NCBI GenBank assembly: GCA_030697165.1 | Contig: JAUYQQ010000001.1 | Location: forward strand, 186,001 to 250,000 | Direction: 5' to 3' | Origin: Acidobacteriota bacterium | Lineage (GTDB): Bacteria > Acidobacteriota > Vicinamibacteria > Vicinamibacterales > UBA2999 | Length of the DNA stretch: 64,000 nucleotides | Shown here: one piece after another, positions 2,363 through 64,000 of the stretch | Position numbering within the stretch: the first letter of the stretch is position 1 | How the letters are laid out: each line of letters opens with the position of its first letter | Notes under the pieces: generated by a model | The model's input: the letters and a program-made list of their open reading frames with translations, nothing else | Databases searched by the model: none | Told to the model about the DNA's origin: nothing | Translations under genes and position numbers: made by a program

Positions 2363-3010
2363 CTAGTGCTTGCCGTTGGTGGCACGCGCACGGACGGAGA
2401 CGGGCCTGCGCTTCGCCGGTGGGGGCACCGGCTCCTGGCGCAGCGGAAACAGCTTTTCGCGAGCCACCCCAACGTCGAGCAACCCCTGGAGCTGGCGGCC
2501 AGAGCGATCGAGCGTCGCAACGATGATCAAGTCGAACTCGACCGTGCCGTGTTCGGTAATGGGCAGCACCGGCATGCCCAGGAACTCGTGCTGGCCCTCG
2601 TGGTCGAACACGGCGACCGGCTCGAGCCCGGATTCCTTCAACGACAGGTAGGCCAGTTCGGCGGCCTCGCCACTGCCGCAGATCGCCACGCGCTTGCCGG
2701 CTTCAGCGCAGTCCTGCAGCGCAGTGCGCAGGTGCTGGCGCACCTCGCCGTAGAGGTGCAGCGAGTAGTCCATGAACTCGTAGGTCAGCCGCGCCTTCTC
2801 GGCAATGCCGCGCGGCGTTACCAGGTAGGTGATCCGGTTGGGCTGCACGTTCACGACCTTGATGAAGCCCTTGTGAACCATGCGCTTGAGATACACGTTG
2901 GCCAGGCCGAGGGCGATGCCCAGCTTGCTGGCCAGCCCGCGCTGCGTGACGCGCCCGTCCTCATGGACTGCTTCGAGCAGCCGTAGGTCGCGGTGGGTTT
3001 CGACGTCCAT
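2363..3010 (-). CDS. EPS-type MarR winged-helix regulator fused to a Rossmann-like domain
   Basis: 215 residues in two parts. Residues 1 to about 75 form a winged helix-turn-helix that matches the pattern of EPS-associated MarR-type regulators (QRGLASKLGIALG recognition region, then VTPRGIAEKARLT). Residues about 105-200 form a Rossmann-like domain beginning RVAICGSGEAAELAY, similar to nucleotide-binding domains seen in sugar-cluster proteins. A fused sensor domain suggests the regulator reads a nucleotide or sugar-nucleotide made by the operon. No Shine-Dalgarno is visible: the bases upstream of the ATG are a GGGATCA tandem array. Candidate target sites are the palindromes at 9732-9823, at the head of this operon. 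Confidence 0.82.
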   Translation of the reverse strand: MDVETHRDLRLLEAVHEDGRVTQRGLASKLGIALGLANVYLKRMVHKGFIKVVNVQPNRITYLVTPRGIAEKARLTYEFMDYSLHLYGEVRQHLRTALQDCAEAGKRVAICGSGEAAELAYLSLKESGLEPVAVFDHEGQHEFLGMPVLPITEHGTVEFDLIIVATLDRSGRQLQGLLDVGVAREKLFPLRQEPVPPPAKRRPVSVRARATNGKH

Positions 3011-3013
3011 TGT

Positions 3014-3066
3014 TCAGGGATCAGGGATCAGGGATCAGGGATCAGGGATCAGGGATCAGGGATCAG
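3014..3066. repeat. Heptamer tandem repeat (TCAGGGA)n at the 3-prime end of neuA
   Basis: Seven perfect copies of TCAGGGA (3014-3062) plus a partial copy. The array encodes the last residues of the NeuA-like protein (LIPDP), supplies its TGA stop (3049-3051), and fills the spacer upstream of the MarR-like start codon. Related heptamers occur inside waaF and lpxK and at 37351-37371. Confidence 0.95.
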
Positions 3067-3759
3067 CGCGCGTTCGGCGGCGGCCCAGTCGTCCATGTCA
3101 TCAATGCTGATCGACCGCTCGGCCGGCATGCGGTAAGCGACGACGCGGTCGCCGTACAGGCTGGGGTCGGCGCCGAGCAACACGCCGGTGCGGACGAGGT
3201 AGATCGCGCCGTTCATGACCCAGGCTTCCGGCAGATCCTGGCGGCGATTGATGCGCTTTCGCACCGGTTCGCCGGTCGCAAACAGCACCGCCTCACCGTT
3301 GGCCGCGAGCCGCAACGTTCGCGAGGGATGGCTGTGTCCAGGGACCTCGCTAACGCTCAGCACCGAATCGGCGCCAGACGACGCAAGTAGCGCGATCGCC
3401 GCCGCGATGTCGGCGCTGGTCCGCAGGGGCGAGGTCGGCTGCAGCACCATCACCGCGTCAGGCGTGTAGCCCGCATGATCACGCATCCAGGTCGCCGCAT
3501 GCTGAACCACGGGCAAATGCGGGGTATCGTCGCGCGACAGCTCCGCCGGACGGATGAACGGCACTTCGCAACCGAGCGACCTGGCCATGTCCGCGATGGC
3601 GGCGTCCTCGGTGGACAGGATCACCCGGTCGAGCGCGGCGCACGCCCGCCCCGCCTCGACGGTGTAAGCAAGCAGCGGTTTGCCGGCCAACAATTTCAGG
3701 TTCTTCCCGGGAACGCCCTTGGACCCGCCGCGCGCCGTGATGATGCCGAGAACCTTCAC
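3049..3759 (-). CDS. neuA: Acylneuraminate cytidylyltransferase-like CMP-sugar synthetase
   Basis: 236 residues. The N-terminus carries the CMP-NulO/CMP-Kdo synthetase signature RGGSKGVPGKN (residues 10-20), followed by LQPTSPLR and the SISIDDMDDW region near the C-terminus. The enzyme would activate a 2-keto-3-deoxy acidic sugar with CTP. The start is GTG, overlapping the NeuC-like stop by 4 bases. The last five residues and the stop codon are written by a GGGATCA tandem repeat, so the native C-terminus may have been replaced. No NeuB-type synthase is visible in the window, so the identity of the sugar is open; legionaminic-, pseudaminic- or sialic-acid-like compounds are possible. Confidence 0.87.
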   Translation of the reverse strand: MKVLGIITARGGSKGVPGKNLKLLAGKPLLAYTVEAGRACAALDRVILSTEDAAIADMARSLGCEVPFIRPAELSRDDTPHLPVVQHAATWMRDHAGYTPDAVMVLQPTSPLRTSADIAAAIALLASSGADSVLSVSEVPGHSHPSRTLRLAANGEAVLFATGEPVRKRINRRQDLPEAWVMNGAIYLVRTGVLLGADPSLYGDRVVAYRMPAERSISIDDMDDWAAAERALIPDP

Positions 3760-4913
3760 GCGCCGTCGAAGAAACGTTTCTGGGTGTAGAGCTTGGCCGA
3801 GGCGAGGATATCAACCACGGTGTCGCTGGTGTTGGAACGGTAGTACAGGTTGGAGGACGGATACGGGCCGTGCGCGAGCTGCGCCGCCACGGCAGCGGCG
3901 ATCTCGGTGGCGTCGTAGGCGACGTGCGTCACGTGTTCGCCCGCCAGGCGCCCGTGCTGACGGCCGCCAATGTTGACCACCGGCGTGCCGAGGTACGAAC
4001 ACTCCTTAATGCCCGCCGAGGAGTTGCCGACCAGGCAGGCGGCGTTGGCGAGCAGGGCCACGAACCGATCGGCCGGCACGTTGGTGATGAAGTGCATCCT
4101 GGCGGTGAGCTCGGCGTGGCGCTCGCGCATGTGGCGCAGGCTGTCGGCCATCTCGCCGGTGCCCGCGTCCGCATTGGGCCAGAACCAGATGGCGGGAAGG
4201 TCCAGCGCCGCCACCGCCCGCAACGTTGTTTCCAGGTGCAGCCGGTTGTCGGCCTCGGTGGTGACCGGGTGCTGCACCACCATCAGGAACGGTTGCTCGA
4301 CATCAATCGGGTAGCCGACGCCGAAGCGGTTGACCTCGTCACTGGTAATCGCGGTGTCCACCGCCGCCGCCAGTTCGACGTCGAGCGAACCGGTATTGAA
4401 GACGTACTGGGGATCCTCGCCCATCGCCAGCACCCGGCGCTCGGCGTCGGCGTTGGTGACGAAGTGCAGGTGGGCCAGTTTGGTGATGGCGTGACGAACG
4501 CTCTCGTCGATGCTGCCGGTGACGTCGCCGCCCTCGATGTGCGCGATGGTGATGTTCAGGTACGCCGCGGCCATGGCTATGGCCAGCTGCTCGAAACGAT
4601 CGCCGCAAATGACGACCAGATCAGGGTTCGCGGTGTACAGCTCGTTGGTGAACTCCAGCGCGGTCAGGCAGGCGGTCTTGGCCATGGCCACGTGGTTGCC
4701 GCCCTCGATCACGTTGAACAAAGACGAGGCAATGTCAAAGCCACCCGCGGCGATGTCGTCGGCAATGTGCCGGCTGTACTTGTCGAGCAGGATCGATCCG
4801 CCCAGCATCAGCTTGAGGTCGATGCCGGGGTGTGCCTGCAGCTTGCGCAGCAGCATCTGGCTGCGGCCGTAGTAGGCGCGGTTGGTGATCGGAAAGCAGA
4901 CCTTGCGCTTCAT
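3756..4913 (-). CDS. neuC: UDP-N-acetylglucosamine 2-epimerase, hydrolysing type (NeuC-like)
   Basis: 385 residues from ATG 4913, the usual length of the family. Diagnostic blocks are GDRFEQ (104-109), HIEGGDVTGSIDE and RHAITKLAH (125-148), and VGNSSAGIKE near the C-terminus, the UDP-binding part of GT-B-fold 2-epimerases. The reaction is conversion of a UDP-HexNAc to a free ManNAc-type sugar with release of UDP. The longer reading frame extends upstream to 5030, but GGGGAG eight bases before ATG 4913 and homology to known N-termini favour the shorter form. It overlaps neuA by 4 bases. Confidence 0.88.
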   Translation of the reverse strand: MKRKVCFPITNRAYYGRSQMLLRKLQAHPGIDLKLMLGGSILLDKYSRHIADDIAAGGFDIASSLFNVIEGGNHVAMAKTACLTALEFTNELYTANPDLVVICGDRFEQLAIAMAAAYLNITIAHIEGGDVTGSIDESVRHAITKLAHLHFVTNADAERRVLAMGEDPQYVFNTGSLDVELAAAVDTAITSDEVNRFGVGYPIDVEQPFLMVVQHPVTTEADNRLHLETTLRAVAALDLPAIWFWPNADAGTGEMADSLRHMRERHAELTARMHFITNVPADRFVALLANAACLVGNSSAGIKECSYLGTPVVNIGGRQHGRLAGEHVTHVAYDATEIAAAVAAQLAHGPYPSSNLYYRSNTSDTVVDILASAKLYTQKRFFDGA

Positions 4914-5241
4914 CACCACCGCTCCCCGGCCATCTGCCGGACAAACACAGCCACAGATTCGACACCGATTAGACGCCGATTGAGAACCAGGCGCGCTCCG
5001 CCTTCGACAACGGGCCCGCGAGGCGGCCAAAGGCCGCCGCCACGAGGCAGCGGAGCCGGATTCGAGAGCAGGCCGCGGGATATCAGTGCCGCTCTCGAAT
5101 CCGGTTCCGCTGCCTCGTGGCCGGACGCCCTGGTTTGAGCGGCGTCCGCGGGCCCTCGGCTAATCTGCGTGAATCGGTGCAAATCGGTGGCTGTACGTTT
5201 GATGCGCGCGCGAGGTGACCGCATGGGGGGCTTTGCGAGAT
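4914..5241. other. 328-base spacer between neuC and the aldehyde dehydrogenase gene
   Basis: No credible gene. Almost all of it is the nested palindromic element at 4947-5194. The remaining bases upstream of neuC hold its ribosome-binding site. Because the operon continues through it, the element would be transcribed as structured RNA between two coding regions. Confidence 0.8.
4947..5194. repeat. Nested palindromic element with a cloverleaf-like fold
   Basis: Four sets of inverted repeats pack with almost no free bases. The closing stem is GGGCCCGCG (5012-5020) with CGCGGGCCC (5147-5155). Inside it are hairpin 1, GGCGGCC-AAA-GGCCGCC (5022-5038); hairpin 2 with 31-base arms at 5039-5069 and 5091-5121, one mismatch; and hairpin 3, CGGACGCC with GGCGTCCG (5122-5148). 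Looser outer arms, both beginning ACAGCCAC on their own strand, lie at 4947-4985 and 5160-5194. A MITE-like or REP-like cassette or a structured RNA would fit. No coding sequence is present. Confidence 0.85.
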
Positions 5242-6705
5242 TCACAATCGTCCCGGGTCGTGATTGATCACGACGGTCTTCAACTCCGTGTAGACGTCGA
5301 GGGATTCAGTGCCGGGCTCGCGGAAGCCGTTGCCGGAATTCTTGACGCCGCCAAACGGCATGTGCGGCCCGGCGCCGAACGTGGCGCCATTGACCGACAC
5401 CAGGCCGCCTCGATAGCGGGCAACGAACGCCTGCGCACGATGGTGGCTCGCGGTGTGAATCGTGCCGGTCAGGCCGTAGCTCGTGCCATTCGCCAGTTGC
5501 ACGGCTTCGTCGAAGTCGCGGCAGCGATACAGGCACGTGACCGGCCCAAACAGCTCGTGCTGCGAGACTTCATCGTTCATCGCCGCACCTTCCAGGACCG
5601 TGGGCGCCATGTAGTAGCCGGGCGCCAGGGCGGTGACGGCACTGCCACCGGCCAGCAGCGTGGCCCCGCGCGACACCGCGCCCGCGACCTGCCCCACCAG
5701 CCGATCCAGGCTGGCGCGCGAAATCACCGGCCCGCACTCATCATCGGGACCCGAGCCCACGCGCACGCGCGCCACCCGCTCCAGCAGAGCCTTGCGGAAG
5801 GCGTCGTAGACGCGGTCGAACACGATCAGGCGGCTGCCCGATGCGCACCGCTGCCCCGCATCCACAAACGCCGATGCTACCGCCAACTCCGCCGCCGCTT
5901 CCAGGTCCGCATCGTCACAAACGACAAACGGGTTCTTGCCACCAAGCTCGAGGCAGACCTTGGCGAGCACGGCGCGCTCGCTGACCATCTTCTGGATCAG
6001 CTTGCCGGTCGCAGACGAGCCGGTGAAGCTGACCACGCCAACGCGATCGTCCTGCACCAGCGGCGCGCCCGCGTCTGGCCCGTATCCCTGCACCGCCGCG
6101 TAGAGGCCAACCGGGAGGCCGGCATCCTTGAGCAGGCGGCCAAACGCCACCGCCGTGTAGGGCGTGAGCTCGTGCGACTTGGCGACGACGGCGTTACCAC
6201 AGAGCAGGGCCGGGAACGCCTTCCAGGCAATGCCGGCCAGCGGGCTGTTGAACGGCATGATCCCGGCGCAAATGCCGATCGGCGATCGCACGGTCTGCAC
6301 CGTGCGATTCAGGATCGGGCTCGGCATGGTCTTGCCGTAGAACCGGCTACCCTCGCCCTCCATGAACAACGCCAGGTCTGCGGACGAAGCCACTTCGGCA
6401 ATGGCGTTCTTCCACGGCTTGCCGGTCTCGGCCTGGATAATCTCGCCGAACTTGCGCTCACGCTCACGCAGCAACTGCGCCGCGCGACCGAGAATGGCGC
6501 CCCGGCGAGGCGCCGGCACCTGCGCCCACGCGTCGGCGGCGCCAGCCGCCGCTGACAGCGCGTGCGCGACTTCAGCCGCACCGCCACGCGCCACCTGGGC
6601 GACCAGGCGATCGTCTATCGGACAGCGCTTGTCGAATGTGGCGCCGCCCATCGACGGCACTTCGGCGTCGGCAATCCAGTGAGGGACGAAGGAGGGGTAA
6701 GACAC
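5242..6705 (-). CDS. NAD(P)-dependent aldehyde dehydrogenase
   Basis: 487 residues, full length for the ALDH superfamily. Key positions are FTGS (227-230) in the cofactor site, general base E253 in LELGGKNP, catalytic C287 in GQRCASG, and a C-terminal PFGGVKNSGNG. It would oxidise an aldehyde to the acid. The start is GTG with AGGAGGGG-like bases just upstream. Placed between transketolase and the NeuC-like epimerase, it may oxidise an aldose or ketose intermediate of the surface sugar; a general detoxification role cannot be excluded. Confidence 0.92.
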   Translation of the reverse strand: MSYPSFVPHWIADAEVPSMGGATFDKRCPIDDRLVAQVARGGAAEVAHALSAAAGAADAWAQVPAPRRGAILGRAAQLLRERERKFGEIIQAETGKPWKNAIAEVASSADLALFMEGEGSRFYGKTMPSPILNRTVQTVRSPIGICAGIMPFNSPLAGIAWKAFPALLCGNAVVAKSHELTPYTAVAFGRLLKDAGLPVGLYAAVQGYGPDAGAPLVQDDRVGVVSFTGSSATGKLIQKMVSERAVLAKVCLELGGKNPFVVCDDADLEAAAELAVASAFVDAGQRCASGSRLIVFDRVYDAFRKALLERVARVRVGSGPDDECGPVISRASLDRLVGQVAGAVSRGATLLAGGSAVTALAPGYYMAPTVLEGAAMNDEVSQHELFGPVTCLYRCRDFDEAVQLANGTSYGLTGTIHTASHHRAQAFVARYRGGLVSVNGATFGAGPHMPFGGVKNSGNGFREPGTESLDVYTELKTVVINHDPGRL

Positions 6706-6708
6706 TGT

Positions 6709-6759
6709 CAGTTGAAAGTTGAAGAGTTGAAAGTTGGTAGTTTCAGTTCAAAGTTTCAG
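6709..6759. repeat. GTTGAAAGTT short repeats between transketolase and ALDH genes
   Basis: The spacer is built of imperfect direct copies of GTTGAAAGTT and its variants (GTTGAAGAGTTGAAAGTT, then TTTCAGTTCAAAGTTTCAG). It starts just upstream of the ALDH start and ends at the transketolase stop. No gene or promoter is evident. Confidence 0.7.
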
Positions 6760-8694
6760 TTACAAGTTCGCAGCCAGGACGGTGCGGGCGATCGAGGCGG
6801 CGTCGAGGCCGTGGTACGCCAGCACTTCGGCGTTGGTGCCGCAGGCGGGGATCTCGGTCAGGCCAATCGGGGTGACCGTAGCCCTCACGCCGGTGCGCGC
6901 GAGCGCCGCGGCTACCATCACACCCTGGCCGAACTCGAGGTAATGGTTGTCGAGCGTCACGACGTGCTTGAAGCCACCCAGCGTCTCGCGGACCCACTGG
7001 TCGTCGATGCGGTTGAGCCACGGCAGGTCGATGACCGCTGCCGAAATGCCCTGGCCGGCCAGTTCCTCGGCAGCGCGCCATGCGTTACTCAGCAGCATGG
7101 TGCCGTAGCCGACGAGCGCCACGTCGGTGCCGGGCTTCAGCGTGACGCCGCGACCGACGTGCAACGTGTAGTCGGCCGGCATCGTGTACGGCAGGTCGAG
7201 CGGCACGTTGACGAAGCGCAGGTAGGTGCTTTCGGGGTTCTGCTCGACTGCCCAGCGAATGGCCAGCCGCGCTTCCCGCTCGCTACACGGCTCGAATGCG
7301 ATCAGGCCGGGCACCGCGCCAATCGCCGAAATGTCGCGCACCGACTGGTGCGAGTGGCCGGGGCCGCCGGGGACGAGGCCGGCCAACGTCGCGACGTAGA
7401 TGATCTTCGTCTTCTCGGTGGCGTTGTTGTAGATATGCTCGTTGGCGCGGGTGCCCAGGAAGCACGCAAACGAGTGCACCACCGGCAGCATGCCGCGCAG
7501 GGCCATGCCACCGGCCGCCGACACCATGTGCATTTCAGCAATGCCACACTCGATGAACCGCTCCGGCAGCTCCGCCTTGAACGCCTCGATGCCGCAATCC
7601 GACAGCAGGTCGGCATCCATCACCACGATCTCGGGACGGTGACGCGCCATCGCGAGCAGTTCGTCTCCGTACGCGAGCACGATCTTCTCCGGCTTCGACG
7701 GCGAAATGCGCACCGGCAACGGCGCCGAGGTCAGCACCGCCGGCGGCACGCCAATCGTGTCGAGCGTGCCGTTGACGCGCGCGATCATCTCGCGGGTCGC
7801 GGCGACGTAGTCCTTAAGCGACGGCGCGCCGGCGTGGAAGTGATAGGTCTGGTCACCGCAGGCCAGGCCCTCCATGAACGACACGCCCTTGCCCTTGATG
7901 GTGTCGGCAATGAACACCTTCGGCTTGTCGGTCACGGTGGCGAAGTGCGCAAGCGTATCGCGAAGCACGGCGAAGTCGTGGCCGTCGCCGCGGCGCACCT
8001 CCCAGCCGAACGCGCGGAACTTGTCCTCGATCGGACCGAGGTCGCTGACCGCGGCCACCGCTGAATCCGACTGCAGCTTGTTGTGATCGACGATCACGGT
8101 GATCTCGGCCAGGCCCTCGTTGGCCACCGGCTGCAGCGACTCCCAGATTTGCCCTTCCTGCAACTCGCCATCACCGGTCATCACGACGATCCGTCCGGCG
8201 CGGCCGGTGTAGCGGTTGGCCCGGGCCATGCCGTAAGCCTTGGCAATGCCCATGCCGAGCGAACCGGTGTTGGTGGCAATAAACGGCGTCGCCACATCGG
8301 GATGACCCGGCAGGCCGTTAATGCGGCGCAACTGCGGCAGCAGGTCGAAGCCGAGCTTCTCCATCGCGATCAGCAGCGAATACAGCGCCGGCGCGTCGTG
8401 GCCCTTCGACGAGAAATAAATGTCGGCGTCATCGCTGTCGCCATTGGGGTCGCGCAGGTACTCGGTCCACAGCCAGGTGATGATGTCGGTGGAGCTGAAG
8501 CTCGAACCGATATGGCCCGACCCGGCCTGCATGATCATGAACAGCGTGTTGATGCGGCACAGGTCTGCGATCACGCCGGCCCGAACAATCGGATCCGTCA
8601 CCCCGTCGCGCACCGCGCGAAACACGTCCCGCGACACGTACGACAGCGAGTCGTCGCCTACTAGCGCACGATCCGAGAAGTCTTTTTCGCCCAT
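6760..8694 (-). CDS. Transketolase (thiamine-diphosphate enzyme), full length
   Basis: 644 residues comprising all three transketolase domains. The thiamine-diphosphate motif starts at GDGELQEG (174-181) and ends at the conserved N of VDHNK (205); SSKGHDAPALY and GSLGMGI are typical. The Pyr domain follows residue about 340 (GIAEMHMVSAAGGMA). The reaction is transfer of a two-carbon ketol unit between sugars. Location inside a glycan operon, not next to pentose-phosphate genes (zwf and gnd are at 45-48 kb), suggests a dedicated sugar-chain role. It could instead simply be the housekeeping enzyme. Confidence 0.92.
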   Translation of the reverse strand: MGEKDFSDRALVGDDSLSYVSRDVFRAVRDGVTDPIVRAGVIADLCRINTLFMIMQAGSGHIGSSFSSTDIITWLWTEYLRDPNGDSDDADIYFSSKGHDAPALYSLLIAMEKLGFDLLPQLRRINGLPGHPDVATPFIATNTGSLGMGIAKAYGMARANRYTGRAGRIVVMTGDGELQEGQIWESLQPVANEGLAEITVIVDHNKLQSDSAVAAVSDLGPIEDKFRAFGWEVRRGDGHDFAVLRDTLAHFATVTDKPKVFIADTIKGKGVSFMEGLACGDQTYHFHAGAPSLKDYVAATREMIARVNGTLDTIGVPPAVLTSAPLPVRISPSKPEKIVLAYGDELLAMARHRPEIVVMDADLLSDCGIEAFKAELPERFIECGIAEMHMVSAAGGMALRGMLPVVHSFACFLGTRANEHIYNNATEKTKIIYVATLAGLVPGGPGHSHQSVRDISAIGAVPGLIAFEPCSEREARLAIRWAVEQNPESTYLRFVNVPLDLPYTMPADYTLHVGRGVTLKPGTDVALVGYGTMLLSNAWRAAEELAGQGISAAVIDLPWLNRIDDQWVRETLGGFKHVVTLDNHYLEFGQGVMVAAALARTGVRATVTPIGLTEIPACGTNAEVLAYHGLDAASIARTVLAANL

Positions 8695-63282: not shown

Positions 63283-63304
63283 TGCTGATTCGATTATGGT
63301 CTAT

Positions 63305-63413
63305 CACGGGGGTTCAAGCACGGGGGTTCAATCACGACGGTTCAAGCACGGGGGTTCAATCACGACGGTTCAATCACGACGGTTCAATCACGACGGTTCA
63401 AGCACGGTGGTTC
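63305..63413. repeat. 14-base direct repeat array, downstream side of the four-helix-bundle gene
   Basis: Eight units of CACGGGGGTTCAA(G/T) or CACGACGGTTCAA(G/T) in perfect 14-base register (63305, 63319, 63333, 63347, 63361, 63375, 63389, 63403 partial). The stop of the four-helix gene lies in the seventh unit. The units are inverted relative to the array at 63824-63906. Confidence 0.97.
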
Positions 63414-63793
63414 TTTTTGGCTTTCTGTTTTGCTGCCGCCGATCGTAGGTAGACCTGCAGGCTAGTGATGGCGGAGCGGCAGCGAGCGCCTTTTAGGATG
63501 AGGGGACCGACCAACGCCGCTGGGAAGTAGCTACTCTCTACCCCGTCTCGTAAGTGGTTCTCCGTCTCGTCCAGTGAGCCGCGAGCGATGCTCAAGAACC
63601 TGGCGAAGTCGCCGGGGTCATAGCGGCCAAACCCTTCGGCAATATTGCTGGCAATTGACCGGCTCGAATCATTCAACTGTTCGCAGAATCTGCGATCTCG
63701 AGACGCCGGACCGGACTTGGTCAGCTTGAGCACCTGCTCACGAAGCTCGAAGGCAAGTTGCCATGCCACCAGTTCCCGAAAGTGCTTGGCCAT
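63398..63793 (-). CDS. Four-helix-bundle protein (23S rRNA intervening sequence protein family)
   Basis: 131 residues from ATG 63793 (a longer frame goes through the upstream repeat array and is not conserved). HFRELVAWQLAFELREQV, FCEQLNDSSRSIASNIAEGF and FLSIARGSLDETENHL are the hallmark helices of the S23/Avd-like four-helix-bundle family, whose members bind nucleic acid or form pentamers. The last residues (NHRA) and the TGA are encoded by a 14-base repeat. The gene sits between inverted repeat arrays and was probably acquired as a unit. Confidence 0.92.
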   Translation of the reverse strand: MAKHFRELVAWQLAFELREQVLKLTKSGPASRDRRFCEQLNDSSRSIASNIAEGFGRYDPGDFARFLSIARGSLDETENHLRDGVESSYFPAALVGPLILKGARCRSAITSLQVYLRSAAAKQKAKKNHRA

Positions 63794-63823
63794 GCCCCGC
63801 GACGGGAGCACAAACAGTGCCAA

Positions 63824-63906
63824 CGAACCTTCGTGGTAGAACCTTCGTGGTTGAACCCCCGTGGTTGAACCCCCGTAGTTGAACCCCCGTGGTTGAACCC
63901 CCGTGG
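63824..63906. repeat. 14-base direct repeat array, upstream side of the four-helix-bundle gene
   Basis: About six units of TTGAACCCCCGTGG or TAGAACCTTCGTGG in 14-base register (63824, 63838, 63851, 63865, 63879, 63893). These are the reverse complement of the array at 63305-63413. The array ends six bases before the permease stop. Confidence 0.95.
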
Positions 63907-63911
63907 TTGAA

Positions 63912-64000
63912 CTACTCGTATCGCAGCGCACTCATGGGATCGATCCTCGACGCGCGCATGGCCGGAATGAATCCCGCGCCCATGGCCACCAGGGCGAGGG
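63912..64000 (-). CDS. MacB/FtsX-type ABC transporter permease, C-terminal end
   Basis: 29 codons enter from the right edge: LALVAMGAGFIPAMRASRIDPMSALRYE then TAG. The PAxRASRIDPMxALRYE tail closes the last cytoplasmic segment of MacB-like and orphan permeases abundant in Acidobacteriota. The stop is six bases from the repeat array. The rest lies outside the window. Confidence 0.82.
   Translation of the reverse strand, partial: LALVAMGAGFIPAMRASRIDPMSALRYE

What the first reader, a model, noticed from the sequence alone, without database searches (positions are those of the whole stretch)
4947..5194. Cloverleaf-like nested palindrome inside the surface-sugar operon
A closing stem (5012-5020 with 5147-5155) encloses three hairpins with almost no unpaired bases, one with 31-base arms carrying a single mismatch. 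Outer arms (ACAGCCAC...) add a second layer. It lies between neuC and the aldehyde dehydrogenase gene of one operon, so it would be transcribed. The four-way-junction geometry is unusual for simple REP sequences.
Basis: seen in the sequence. Interest (0 to 1): 0.62.

Follow-up and report, generated by a model that had tools for sequence, protein, structure and literature searches.

The report
Gene-less mobile DNA cloverleaf element
The folded repeat between two sugar-pathway genes looks like a gene-less copy of a small selfish DNA element whose full-length relatives carry one tiny nuclease gene, which would help to explain short repeat arrays seen between genes in many bacteria.

Summary
The nested palindrome at 4947-5194 is real, and an insertion: six of eight genus relatives have this gene junction without it. 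A model of its four-way junction matches 21 places in the host genome. In 21 of 21 selected copies a closing stem holds hairpins of about 17, 77 and 21 nt; the 77-nt hairpin has nearly unrelated sequence in each copy yet pairs with itself (95.6%; 42.7% between copies). The outer arms are three CACAGATT-type units. Full-length relatives have such arms, and in this genus often cloverleafs, around one small gene, GxxExxY (PF13366/TIGR04256), with a Cas4/RecB-like predicted fold. Inverted short-unit arms flank GxxExxY genes at 38 of 47 loci, 19 of 19 in the rest of the family, but 2 of 8 on plasmids; random places 6-11%. GATT-type arms cluster on the protein tree. Stem mismatches show no G-U preference on the transcript strand, favouring DNA-level function. 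Best reading: a MITE-like, gene-less copy of a nuclease-encoding mobile element. That the nuclease moves it is inferred; no target-site duplication was found.

The parts
4947..5194 (.). whole element (gene-less copy): arm - long spacer - four-way junction - short spacer - arm
   Evidence: insertion relative to six genus relatives; precise ends not fixed because no target-site duplication was found
4950..4981 (+). left arm, GC plus three tandem units (4952-4959, 4963-4970, 4974-4981; CACAGATT, CACCGATT, CGCCGATT)
   Evidence: family of 80 arms in 55 own loci, 61 of 80 with exactly three units by the rule used
4982..5011 (+). long spacer (30 nt)
   Evidence: 7-42 nt in 21 copies
5012..5019 (.). 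closing stem P1, left strand, pairs with 5148-5155
5022..5038 (.). hairpin P2 (short)
5039..5121 (.). hairpin P3 (long; 31-nt arms with one mismatch); its sequence differs from copy to copy
5123..5147 (.). hairpin P4 (short)
5148..5155 (.). closing stem P1, right strand
5156..5161 (+). short spacer
5162..5191 (-). right arm, three units plus GC, inverted relative to the left arm
3756..4919 (-). neuC-type UDP-GlcNAc 2-epimerase gene; its start lies 29 nt from the element
5242..6705 (-). aldehyde dehydrogenase gene; its stop lies 49 nt from the element

Best explanation
The feature is a non-autonomous (MITE-like) copy of a small mobile DNA element. The full element is arm - [cloverleaf] - GxxExxY gene - [cloverleaf] - arm, with the cloverleafs present in this bacterial family only as far as tested. 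The window copy keeps the two arms and one cloverleaf and has no gene. Shown by sequence: a dispersed family, an insertion at a site that is empty in relatives, ends shared with gene-carrying relatives, and a conserved four-way junction with independent compensatory changes. Inferred: the GxxExxY protein, by its predicted fold a minimal Cas4/RecB-like PD-(D/E)XK nuclease, acts on the ends in trans. The three-unit arms would be its recognition site, and the cloverleaf, extruded as a cruciform or folded on single-stranded DNA, the structure that is cut or protected during movement. Copies would survive mainly just behind stop codons because insertions elsewhere are harmful. Selection or repair on folded DNA, not RNA function, would keep the hairpins perfect.
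For: Dispersed family: pattern 110 matches against 22 for the reversed control; 80 arms; covariance model R2 at 21 places in the host and in 8 of 9 genus genomes. Insertion: the alignable ends of the two genes are 331-352 bp apart here, 5-121 bp in six relatives; three of these have nothing there and three have other repeats. Architecture: 21 of 21 selected copies; 21 of 55 pairs with double changes, 98.2% paired against 86.2% shuffled, in 6 copies. Gene link: the gene lies between two cloverleafs in L176, L185, L189, L196 and beside one in L179, L183, L197, L199, i.e. 8 of 29 genus loci. Inverted arms around GxxExxY genes: 38 of 47 distinct evaluable loci in genus and other phyla, 19 of 19 in the rest of the family, a set not chosen by arms; background 12/200, 17/208, 23/216. 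The GATT arm type clusters on the protein tree: 5 changes against 13.9 shuffled, 0 of 500 as low; all four types together 11 against 18.1, 0 of 200. The nearest protein gave the arm type in 15 of 17 new loci (types read by eye). Cloverleaf and gene co-occur: 10 of 11 against 11 of 26 family genomes, p = 0.007, kinship not corrected. Nuclease fold: invariant H, G..E..Y, D, E.K, Q...Y, N-F in 24 proteins; model pLDDT 92; best PDB match SSO0001 4ic1, Foldseek E 8.4e-5, Z 10.1. DNA level: G.T 28 against A.C 31. Sites: 0 of 23 elements inside genes, 19 of 23 with a stop codon within 50 nt.
Against: No target-site duplication in 18 elements, so no direct molecular sign of transposition. No activity was measured and no movement seen within a species. 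The plasmid test set passed the strict inverted-arm test in only 2 of 8 records. Co-clustering of arms and protein also follows if both are merely inherited as one block, and the A, G and R arm types taken alone cluster only weakly (as low in 34, 22 and 24 of 500 shuffles). Outside the genus the cloverleaf-gene co-occurrence is not significant (5 of 6 against 11 of 26, p = 0.086). The cloverleaf was not found in 22 genomes of other phyla, so it is not a general part of GxxExxY elements. Only one empty site was examined. Inverted arrays also flank genes of another family, PF05635, in 17 of 28 loci, and all six Y1_Tnp loci have inverted flanks, so inverted flanks are not special to this nuclease.
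Confidence: 0.66

Rival explanations
1. Free-standing homing-type selfish gene: the palindromic arm pair is a pre-existing repeat and cutting target, and the GxxExxY gene is a nuclease gene that inserts into or spreads between such targets. The gene-less form is then the empty target, not a derivative.
For: Gene-less arm pairs outnumber genes in the host (19 arm pairs under 900 bp, one of them with a false partner, against 8 genes); short 83-90 bp arm pairs look like targets; PD-(D/E)XK homing nucleases exist (recalled); the gene sits co-oriented between genes such as fabD-fabG and ade-mannose-1-phosphate guanylyltransferase.
Against: Arm sequence follows protein clade over distant lineages, as for one element moving as a block; gene-less copies carry their own cloverleafs, and four full elements carry two.
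Confidence: 0.15
2. Structured RNA or mRNA-stability element (like REP/BIME or ERIC in 3' regions): kept because the transcript folds there, and spread by unknown means.
For: 15 of 23 elements lie between co-directional genes, 19 of 23 with a stop codon within 50 nt; very stable RNA fold.
Against: No excess of G.T over A.C mismatches on the transcript strand (28 against 31, p = 0.79), although the helices were taken from RNA folds, which favours G.T; 2 of 23 lie in divergent context; no Rfam family reached its gathering score.
Confidence: 0.1
3. REP-like element of a Y1/HUH (RAYT or TIRYT) transposase.
For: Six Y1_Tnp genes in the genome, with inverted flanks; RAYT/TIRYT elements are described for species that I recall as Acidobacteria (PMC3733652, passages read).
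Against: No CACAGATT arms in the 1.5 kb flanks held for any of the six Y1_Tnp genes; arms and cloverleafs do flank GxxExxY genes.
Confidence: 0.04
4. Product of a reverse transcriptase that writes short tandem repeats (telomerase-like, as reported for DRT10), with the cloverleaf as its RNA.
For: Arms are short tandem arrays and the interior is structured; DRT10 makes tandem-repeat DNA with an ncRNA (PMC12632851, start of abstract seen).
Against: Arms have a nearly fixed number of units (61 of 80 exactly three), not open-ended arrays; no RNA-level signal; no reverse transcriptase was looked for.
Confidence: 0.03

Closest known systems
MITEs and REP/REPIN-RAYT systems (REPtrons, TIRtrons; PMC3733652, passages read)
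   Same: small dispersed palindromic intergenic repeats without a gene, sharing ends with a gene-carrying relative; spread by trans action is proposed
   Different: linked gene is a Cas4/RecB-like PD-(D/E)XK protein, not a transposase or HUH enzyme; ends are three-unit tandem arrays; interior is a four-way junction with an individually sequenced 77-nt hairpin
GxxExxY protein, TIGR04256 / PF13366
   Same: the gene in the full-length relatives is this family
   Different: no mobility or flanking structure is described for it in what I saw: 2 held papers have 'GxxExxY' (of one the passage was read, of the other only the listing) and 1 has PF13366 (listing only)
23S rRNA intervening sequences with four-helix S23 protein (PMC4990558, abstract and outline read)
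   Same: small selfish element with one small gene; that its ends form an inverted-repeat stem is recalled
   Different: lies in rRNA and is removed by RNase III; different gene; here intergenic
Heptamer direct repeats: cyanobacterial STRR (recalled) and TAACTGA repeats (PMC4679880, abstract and outline read)
   Same: intergenic short tandem unit arrays scattered over distant phyla
   Different: described as direct repeats with a possible regulatory role, with no linked gene in the abstract; here 8-letter units at about 11-bp steps, in inverted pairs, with a nuclease gene in full-length relatives
Parvovirus-type terminal hairpins (recalled)
   Same: works-like comparison only: cloverleaf DNA with tandem binding units in the stem
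   Different: no HUH protein seen, not viral, no relationship claimed

Membership tests
MITE | 70-300 bp, terminal inverted repeats, no coding capacity, dispersed | tested here: met
   83-90 and 218-251 bp classes; inverted arms; no gene inside the window copy
MITE | target-site duplication | tested here: inconclusive
   none enriched in 18 elements; old insertions or a mechanism without duplication would both give this
MITE | shares its ends with an autonomous transposase element | tested here: inconclusive
   shares arms and cloverleaf with gene-carrying relatives, but the gene is a nuclease, not a known transposase
REP/REPIN-RAYT | linked to a Y1/HUH transposase gene | tested here: not met
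   0 of 6 Y1_Tnp loci carry these arms in the flanks held, 1.5 kb each side
REP/REPIN-RAYT | 20-40 bp palindrome | tested here: not met
   248 bp with nested hairpins
REP/REPIN-RAYT | GTAG or CGTC tag at one end | not tested
   not searched as such; arms begin (A)CAGCCAC
IVS of 23S rRNA | lies in an rRNA gene and carries a four-helix ORF | tested here: not met
   lies between neuC and aldehyde dehydrogenase genes, no gene inside
Known structured RNA (Rfam 15) | match at a family's gathering score | tested here: not met
   13 matches in 4600-5600, none at its gathering score
GxxExxY-linked tandem-arm element (defined here) | inverted arms of about three tandem units | tested here: met
GxxExxY-linked tandem-arm element (defined here) | four-way junction shared with gene-carrying copies of the same genus | tested here: met
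GxxExxY-linked tandem-arm element (defined here) | GxxExxY gene inside | tested here: not met
   window copy has none; hence 'gene-less copy', not a full member
GxxExxY-linked tandem-arm element (defined here) | moved by the GxxExxY nuclease | not testable with these tools
   needs a bench assay
Cas4/RecB-like nuclease (the partner gene's product) | PD-(D/E)XK fold with D, E.K and Q...Y residues | tested here: met
   invariant in 24 aligned proteins; 4ic1 best match of the predicted model; that Q...Y marks RecB/Cas4 is recalled

The most novel reading that the evidence does not exclude
GxxExxY proteins define a widespread, undescribed class of transposase-free mobile elements: a 120-residue Cas4/RecB-like nuclease between inverted arms of three short units, able to copy gene-less folded DNA in trans. 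Their gene-less remains would be the source of CACAGATT-, CACAGAGA- and CACGAAGA-type intergenic arrays in many phyla, with four-helix-bundle (S23) genes as a parallel class behind heptamer and similar arrays.
Probability: 0.42. Interest if true: 0.88.

Novelty: new variant of a known kind. Interest (0 to 1): 0.74.

Why it matters
It ties a kind of bacterial intergenic repeat that had no known maker to a specific, testable protein family of unknown function, and proposes mobility without a transposase. It also offers a natural set of four-way-junction DNAs whose stems differ in sequence but hardly in length, useful for asking how perfect palindromes are kept in chromosomes.

Tried and rejected
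RNA-level function: tested by mismatch type, no support. A first count on 21 copies of P3, oriented by spacer and not by transcript, showed more G.T than A.C (23 against 13, counted by eye); it is not the right strand test and was replaced.

RAYT/HUH origin: rejected on missing arms. In one search all six Y1_Tnp loci also have inverted flanks over 30, so inverted flanks as such are not special to GxxExxY; the three-unit arms and cloverleaf are what ties the window copy to it.

Large elements: L017 (3.1 kb) and L028 (0.86 kb) arm pairs enclose an ABC-permease-like gene and a glyoxalase-like gene by my reading of the ORFs, not searched; taken as chance pairs of solo arms.

Target-site duplication: none. 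Literature for the arm itself: 0 papers. A first MAFFT alignment of all 21 cores misaligned the hairpins and was not used. PDB by sequence: no match. Viral contigs: 1 match only. Phages: 2 records of one haloarchaeal virus. Cloverleaf in 22 genomes of other phyla: 0; the model rings in the genus, whose members it was built from.

Rows dropped or special. Of the candidates folded, two cut by contig ends (L016, L037) and four without the pattern (L010a, L030, L039, L042) are not among the 21 copies. In one search, 9 of 59 loci could not be evaluated and 3 of the 50 rows were duplicates of the same genome under another handle (L212, L218, L219). Among its misses, L187 has its arms partly outside the 700-bp test stretch, and L186, L199 and L201 have a flank cut short by the contig end. 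In one search, L286 and L287 were not evaluable; L284 passed at 31 without visible units; for arm-type prediction L274 (ambiguous) and L284 were left out, L278 and L290 were wrong. In one search two rows under 80 residues were left out. One search read a wrong frame and was not used.

Full report
What is there. The stretch 4947-5194 lies between an aldehyde dehydrogenase gene (5242-6705, minus) and a NeuC-type gene (3756-4919, minus). It folds as outer arms, a closing stem and three hairpins with 3 unpaired nt at the junction; z is -14.0 (RNA, plus), -13.4 (RNA, minus) and -12.8 (DNA). Each arm consists of three tandem units (CACAGATT, CACCGATT, CGCCGATT and the like; steps of 10-11) facing inwards.

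It is a family. In the host genome (5.39 Mb) the arm pattern with up to 2 mismatches has 110 matches against 22 for the reversed pattern. In 55 own loci (374 kb), most of them fetched because of an arm, I find 80 arms, 61 with exactly three units by my rule, 17 with two, one with four and one with seven. Arm pairs fall in two size classes, 83-90 bp (4 pairs) and 218-251 bp (12 pairs); three further pairs are longer, one of them (L124) with a false partner. With up to 1 mismatch the host has 74 matches (control 11), 7 of 8 other genus genomes have some and one has none; of 51 genomes outside the genus 4 have a single match.

The long class is a cloverleaf. 21 of 21 copies that I took up (18 from the host, 3 from relatives) have a closing stem of 6-13 bp and hairpins of 13-29, 74-84 and 13-25 nt with at most 7 unpaired nt at the junction. 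They were selected: of the candidates folded, two cut by contig ends (L016, L037) and four without the pattern (L010a, L030, L039, L042) are not among them. The 77-nt hairpin is striking: over its first 24 pairs own strands pair at 95.6%, strands of different copies at 42.7%, and the 5' strands of different copies share 31% identity on average, close to random; two pairs of copies share over 80%. In the best-aligned subfamily (6 copies) 21 of 55 pairs have changes on both sides and 98.2% of cells pair, against 86.2% after shuffling. A covariance model, R2, built from many of these copies read on both strands, gives 37 matches at 21 places in the host and matches in 8 of 9 genus genomes, in 11 of 37 family genomes, and in 0 of 22 genomes of other phyla.

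It is an insertion. The two flanking genes are adjacent in six of eight genus relatives; the other two, both under 90% complete, gave no match to them. The alignable ends are 331-352 bp apart here, depending on the relative, and 5, 8, 25, 70, 71 and 121 bp apart there. Three relatives have nothing in the gap; the other three have other repeats: a solo TTCTGCC array (G001), an inverted pair of GAAGGCA arrays (G002) and a short CGACGGCTTCAGCCGTCG hairpin (G007). So this junction seems to have been hit repeatedly by different repeat families. No target-site duplication was found in 18 elements.

Full-length relatives carry a gene. Cloverleafs 0.6-0.7 kb apart enclose a small gene. Two of these proteins match PF13366 PDDEXK_3 (E 6e-36, 3e-39) and TIGR04256 GxxExxY (E 9e-39, 4e-40). 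All 9 genus genomes have the Pfam family, 29 matches in all, 8 in the host. Cloverleafs flank both sides in 4 of these 29 loci and one side in 4 more. In the host one such gene (C11:384-722, L199) has a CACAGATT arm of the window's type and a cloverleaf on one side, the other side being cut by the contig end; it is the best candidate partner for the window copy.

The link is general. I aligned 700 bp upstream with the reverse complement of 700 bp downstream of each gene. A score above 30 occurs in 38 of 47 distinct evaluable loci from the genus and from genomes of other phyla. That set is partly biased: the other-phylum genomes were picked because they carry the arm motif. Scrambled pairings never exceed 30 (192 pairs); random places with real reverse complements give 12 of 200 (window), 17 of 208 (other-phylum arm loci) and 23 of 216 (host arm loci). 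A set not chosen by arms, the rest of the family, gives 19 of 19, one of them (L284) without visible units. A second, the plasmid collection, gives 2 of 8 by the same test; by eye, two more have direct instead of inverted arrays, one has an array on one side, one a single unit on each side, one a weak pair and one nothing clear. Units differ between elements: CACAGATT, CACAGAGA, CACGGAAA, CACGAAGA, CAGGAGA and others. On a tree of 41 proteins the GATT arm type needs 5 changes against 13.9 for shuffled labels (0 of 500 as low), the other three types alone are only weakly clustered (34, 22 and 24 of 500), and all four together need 11 against 18.1 (0 of 200). In the new family set the nearest protein gave the arm type in 15 of 17 loci (types read by eye). 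Common descent of whole elements would also produce this; it shows that arms and gene travel together, not that one binds the other. At genome level 10 of 11 family genomes with a cloverleaf have the gene, against 11 of 26 without (p = 0.007; outside the genus 5 of 6, p = 0.086; kinship not corrected).

The protein. Twenty-four aligned proteins keep H26, G32, E35, Y38, D75, E84, K86, Q98, Y102, L113, N115 and F116 without exception. The model (pLDDT 91.9, pTM 0.84) matches best 4ic1, SSO0001, at Foldseek E 8.4e-5 and Z 10.1, rmsd 4.7 over 103 residues. That this is a Cas4 is recalled. The next rows are the restriction enzyme BpuSI (Z 8.5) and several nucleases at Z 7.5 or below, among them a Cas4-like virophage-resistance protein (7.3) and the Holliday-junction resolvase Hjc (1gef, 6.8); these are not evidence on their own.

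Where it sits and which molecule matters. Of 23 elements none is inside a predicted gene; 15 lie between co-directional, 5 between convergent and 2 between divergent genes, 1 at a contig edge; 19 of 23 have a stop codon within 50 nt (with a simple gene caller of my own). On the strand of the flanking genes, stems of the 15 co-directional elements have 905 Watson-Crick, 28 G.T, 31 A.C and 43 other cells. Selection on RNA should tolerate G.U over A.C; no such excess is seen, so DNA folding is the likelier reason for the pairing.

How it probably works. Shown: mobile-like distribution, insertion, shared ends with a nuclease-family gene, folded DNA. Inferred: the nuclease recognises the arms and works on the extruded or single-stranded cloverleaf in trans. 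I put about 0.8 on 'gene-less copy of a GxxExxY-linked mobile element' and about 0.4 on the nuclease being the mover.

Known or new. 'GxxExxY' is in 2 held papers, in passing in the one whose passage I read, and PF13366 in 1 (listing only); the arm string tried is in none. These searches cover open-licence papers only. Heptamer arrays are known in cyanobacteria and Beggiatoaceae (PMC4679880, abstract and outline); the abstract says no mechanism of transmission is evident. I found inverted flanks around four-helix-bundle (PF05635) genes in 17 of 28 loci, about half of them heptamer arrays by eye, and inverted G-rich unit arrays in 7 of 8 cyanobacterial plasmid loci that I fetched of 26 matching plasmid records, which may be a parallel class; the TAACTGA unit itself formed no arrays there.

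Noticed in passing
window 63283-63925: A four-helix-bundle (PF05635) match at 63515-63778 (minus) is flanked by inverted arrays of CACGGGGGTTCAA-type units, inverted-repeat score 112.
   Followed up: partly
window about 6707-6770: Second dispersed repeat family just upstream of the aldehyde dehydrogenase gene (AACTTTC-type units, read from the sequence); tens of copies in G000, G002 and G008, often as inverted pairs. One such pair brackets a PF05635 match (G000 C13:160371-160664).
   Followed up: partly
window about 3010-3050: GGATCAG-type heptamer array behind the cytidylyltransferase gene (inferred translations); the same unit forms inverted arms around a PF05635 gene in L257.
   Followed up: no
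L105, L107, L109 (ALDH-neuC junction of G001, G002, G007): The same junction carries a different repeat family in each of three relatives: a possible repeat-insertion hot spot.
   Followed up: partly
L297-L304: Four-helix-bundle genes on cyanobacterial plasmids are flanked by inverted G-rich unit arrays (mostly GCAGGGGA-type) in 7 of the 8 records fetched.
   Followed up: partly
G007 = JAIEMQ01 contigs: A MAG titled 'Cyanobacteria bacterium' has contigs of the same lengths as G007, which lies in the host's genus together with G001, whose gene places equal those of a MAG titled Acidobacteria (MELE01): the record title looks wrong.
   Followed up: no
L265: In Sphingomonas parapaucimobilis a GxxExxY gene sits between fabD and fabG, inside a fatty-acid synthesis gene cluster, with a CGCGAAGG-type array on one side only.
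   Followed up: no
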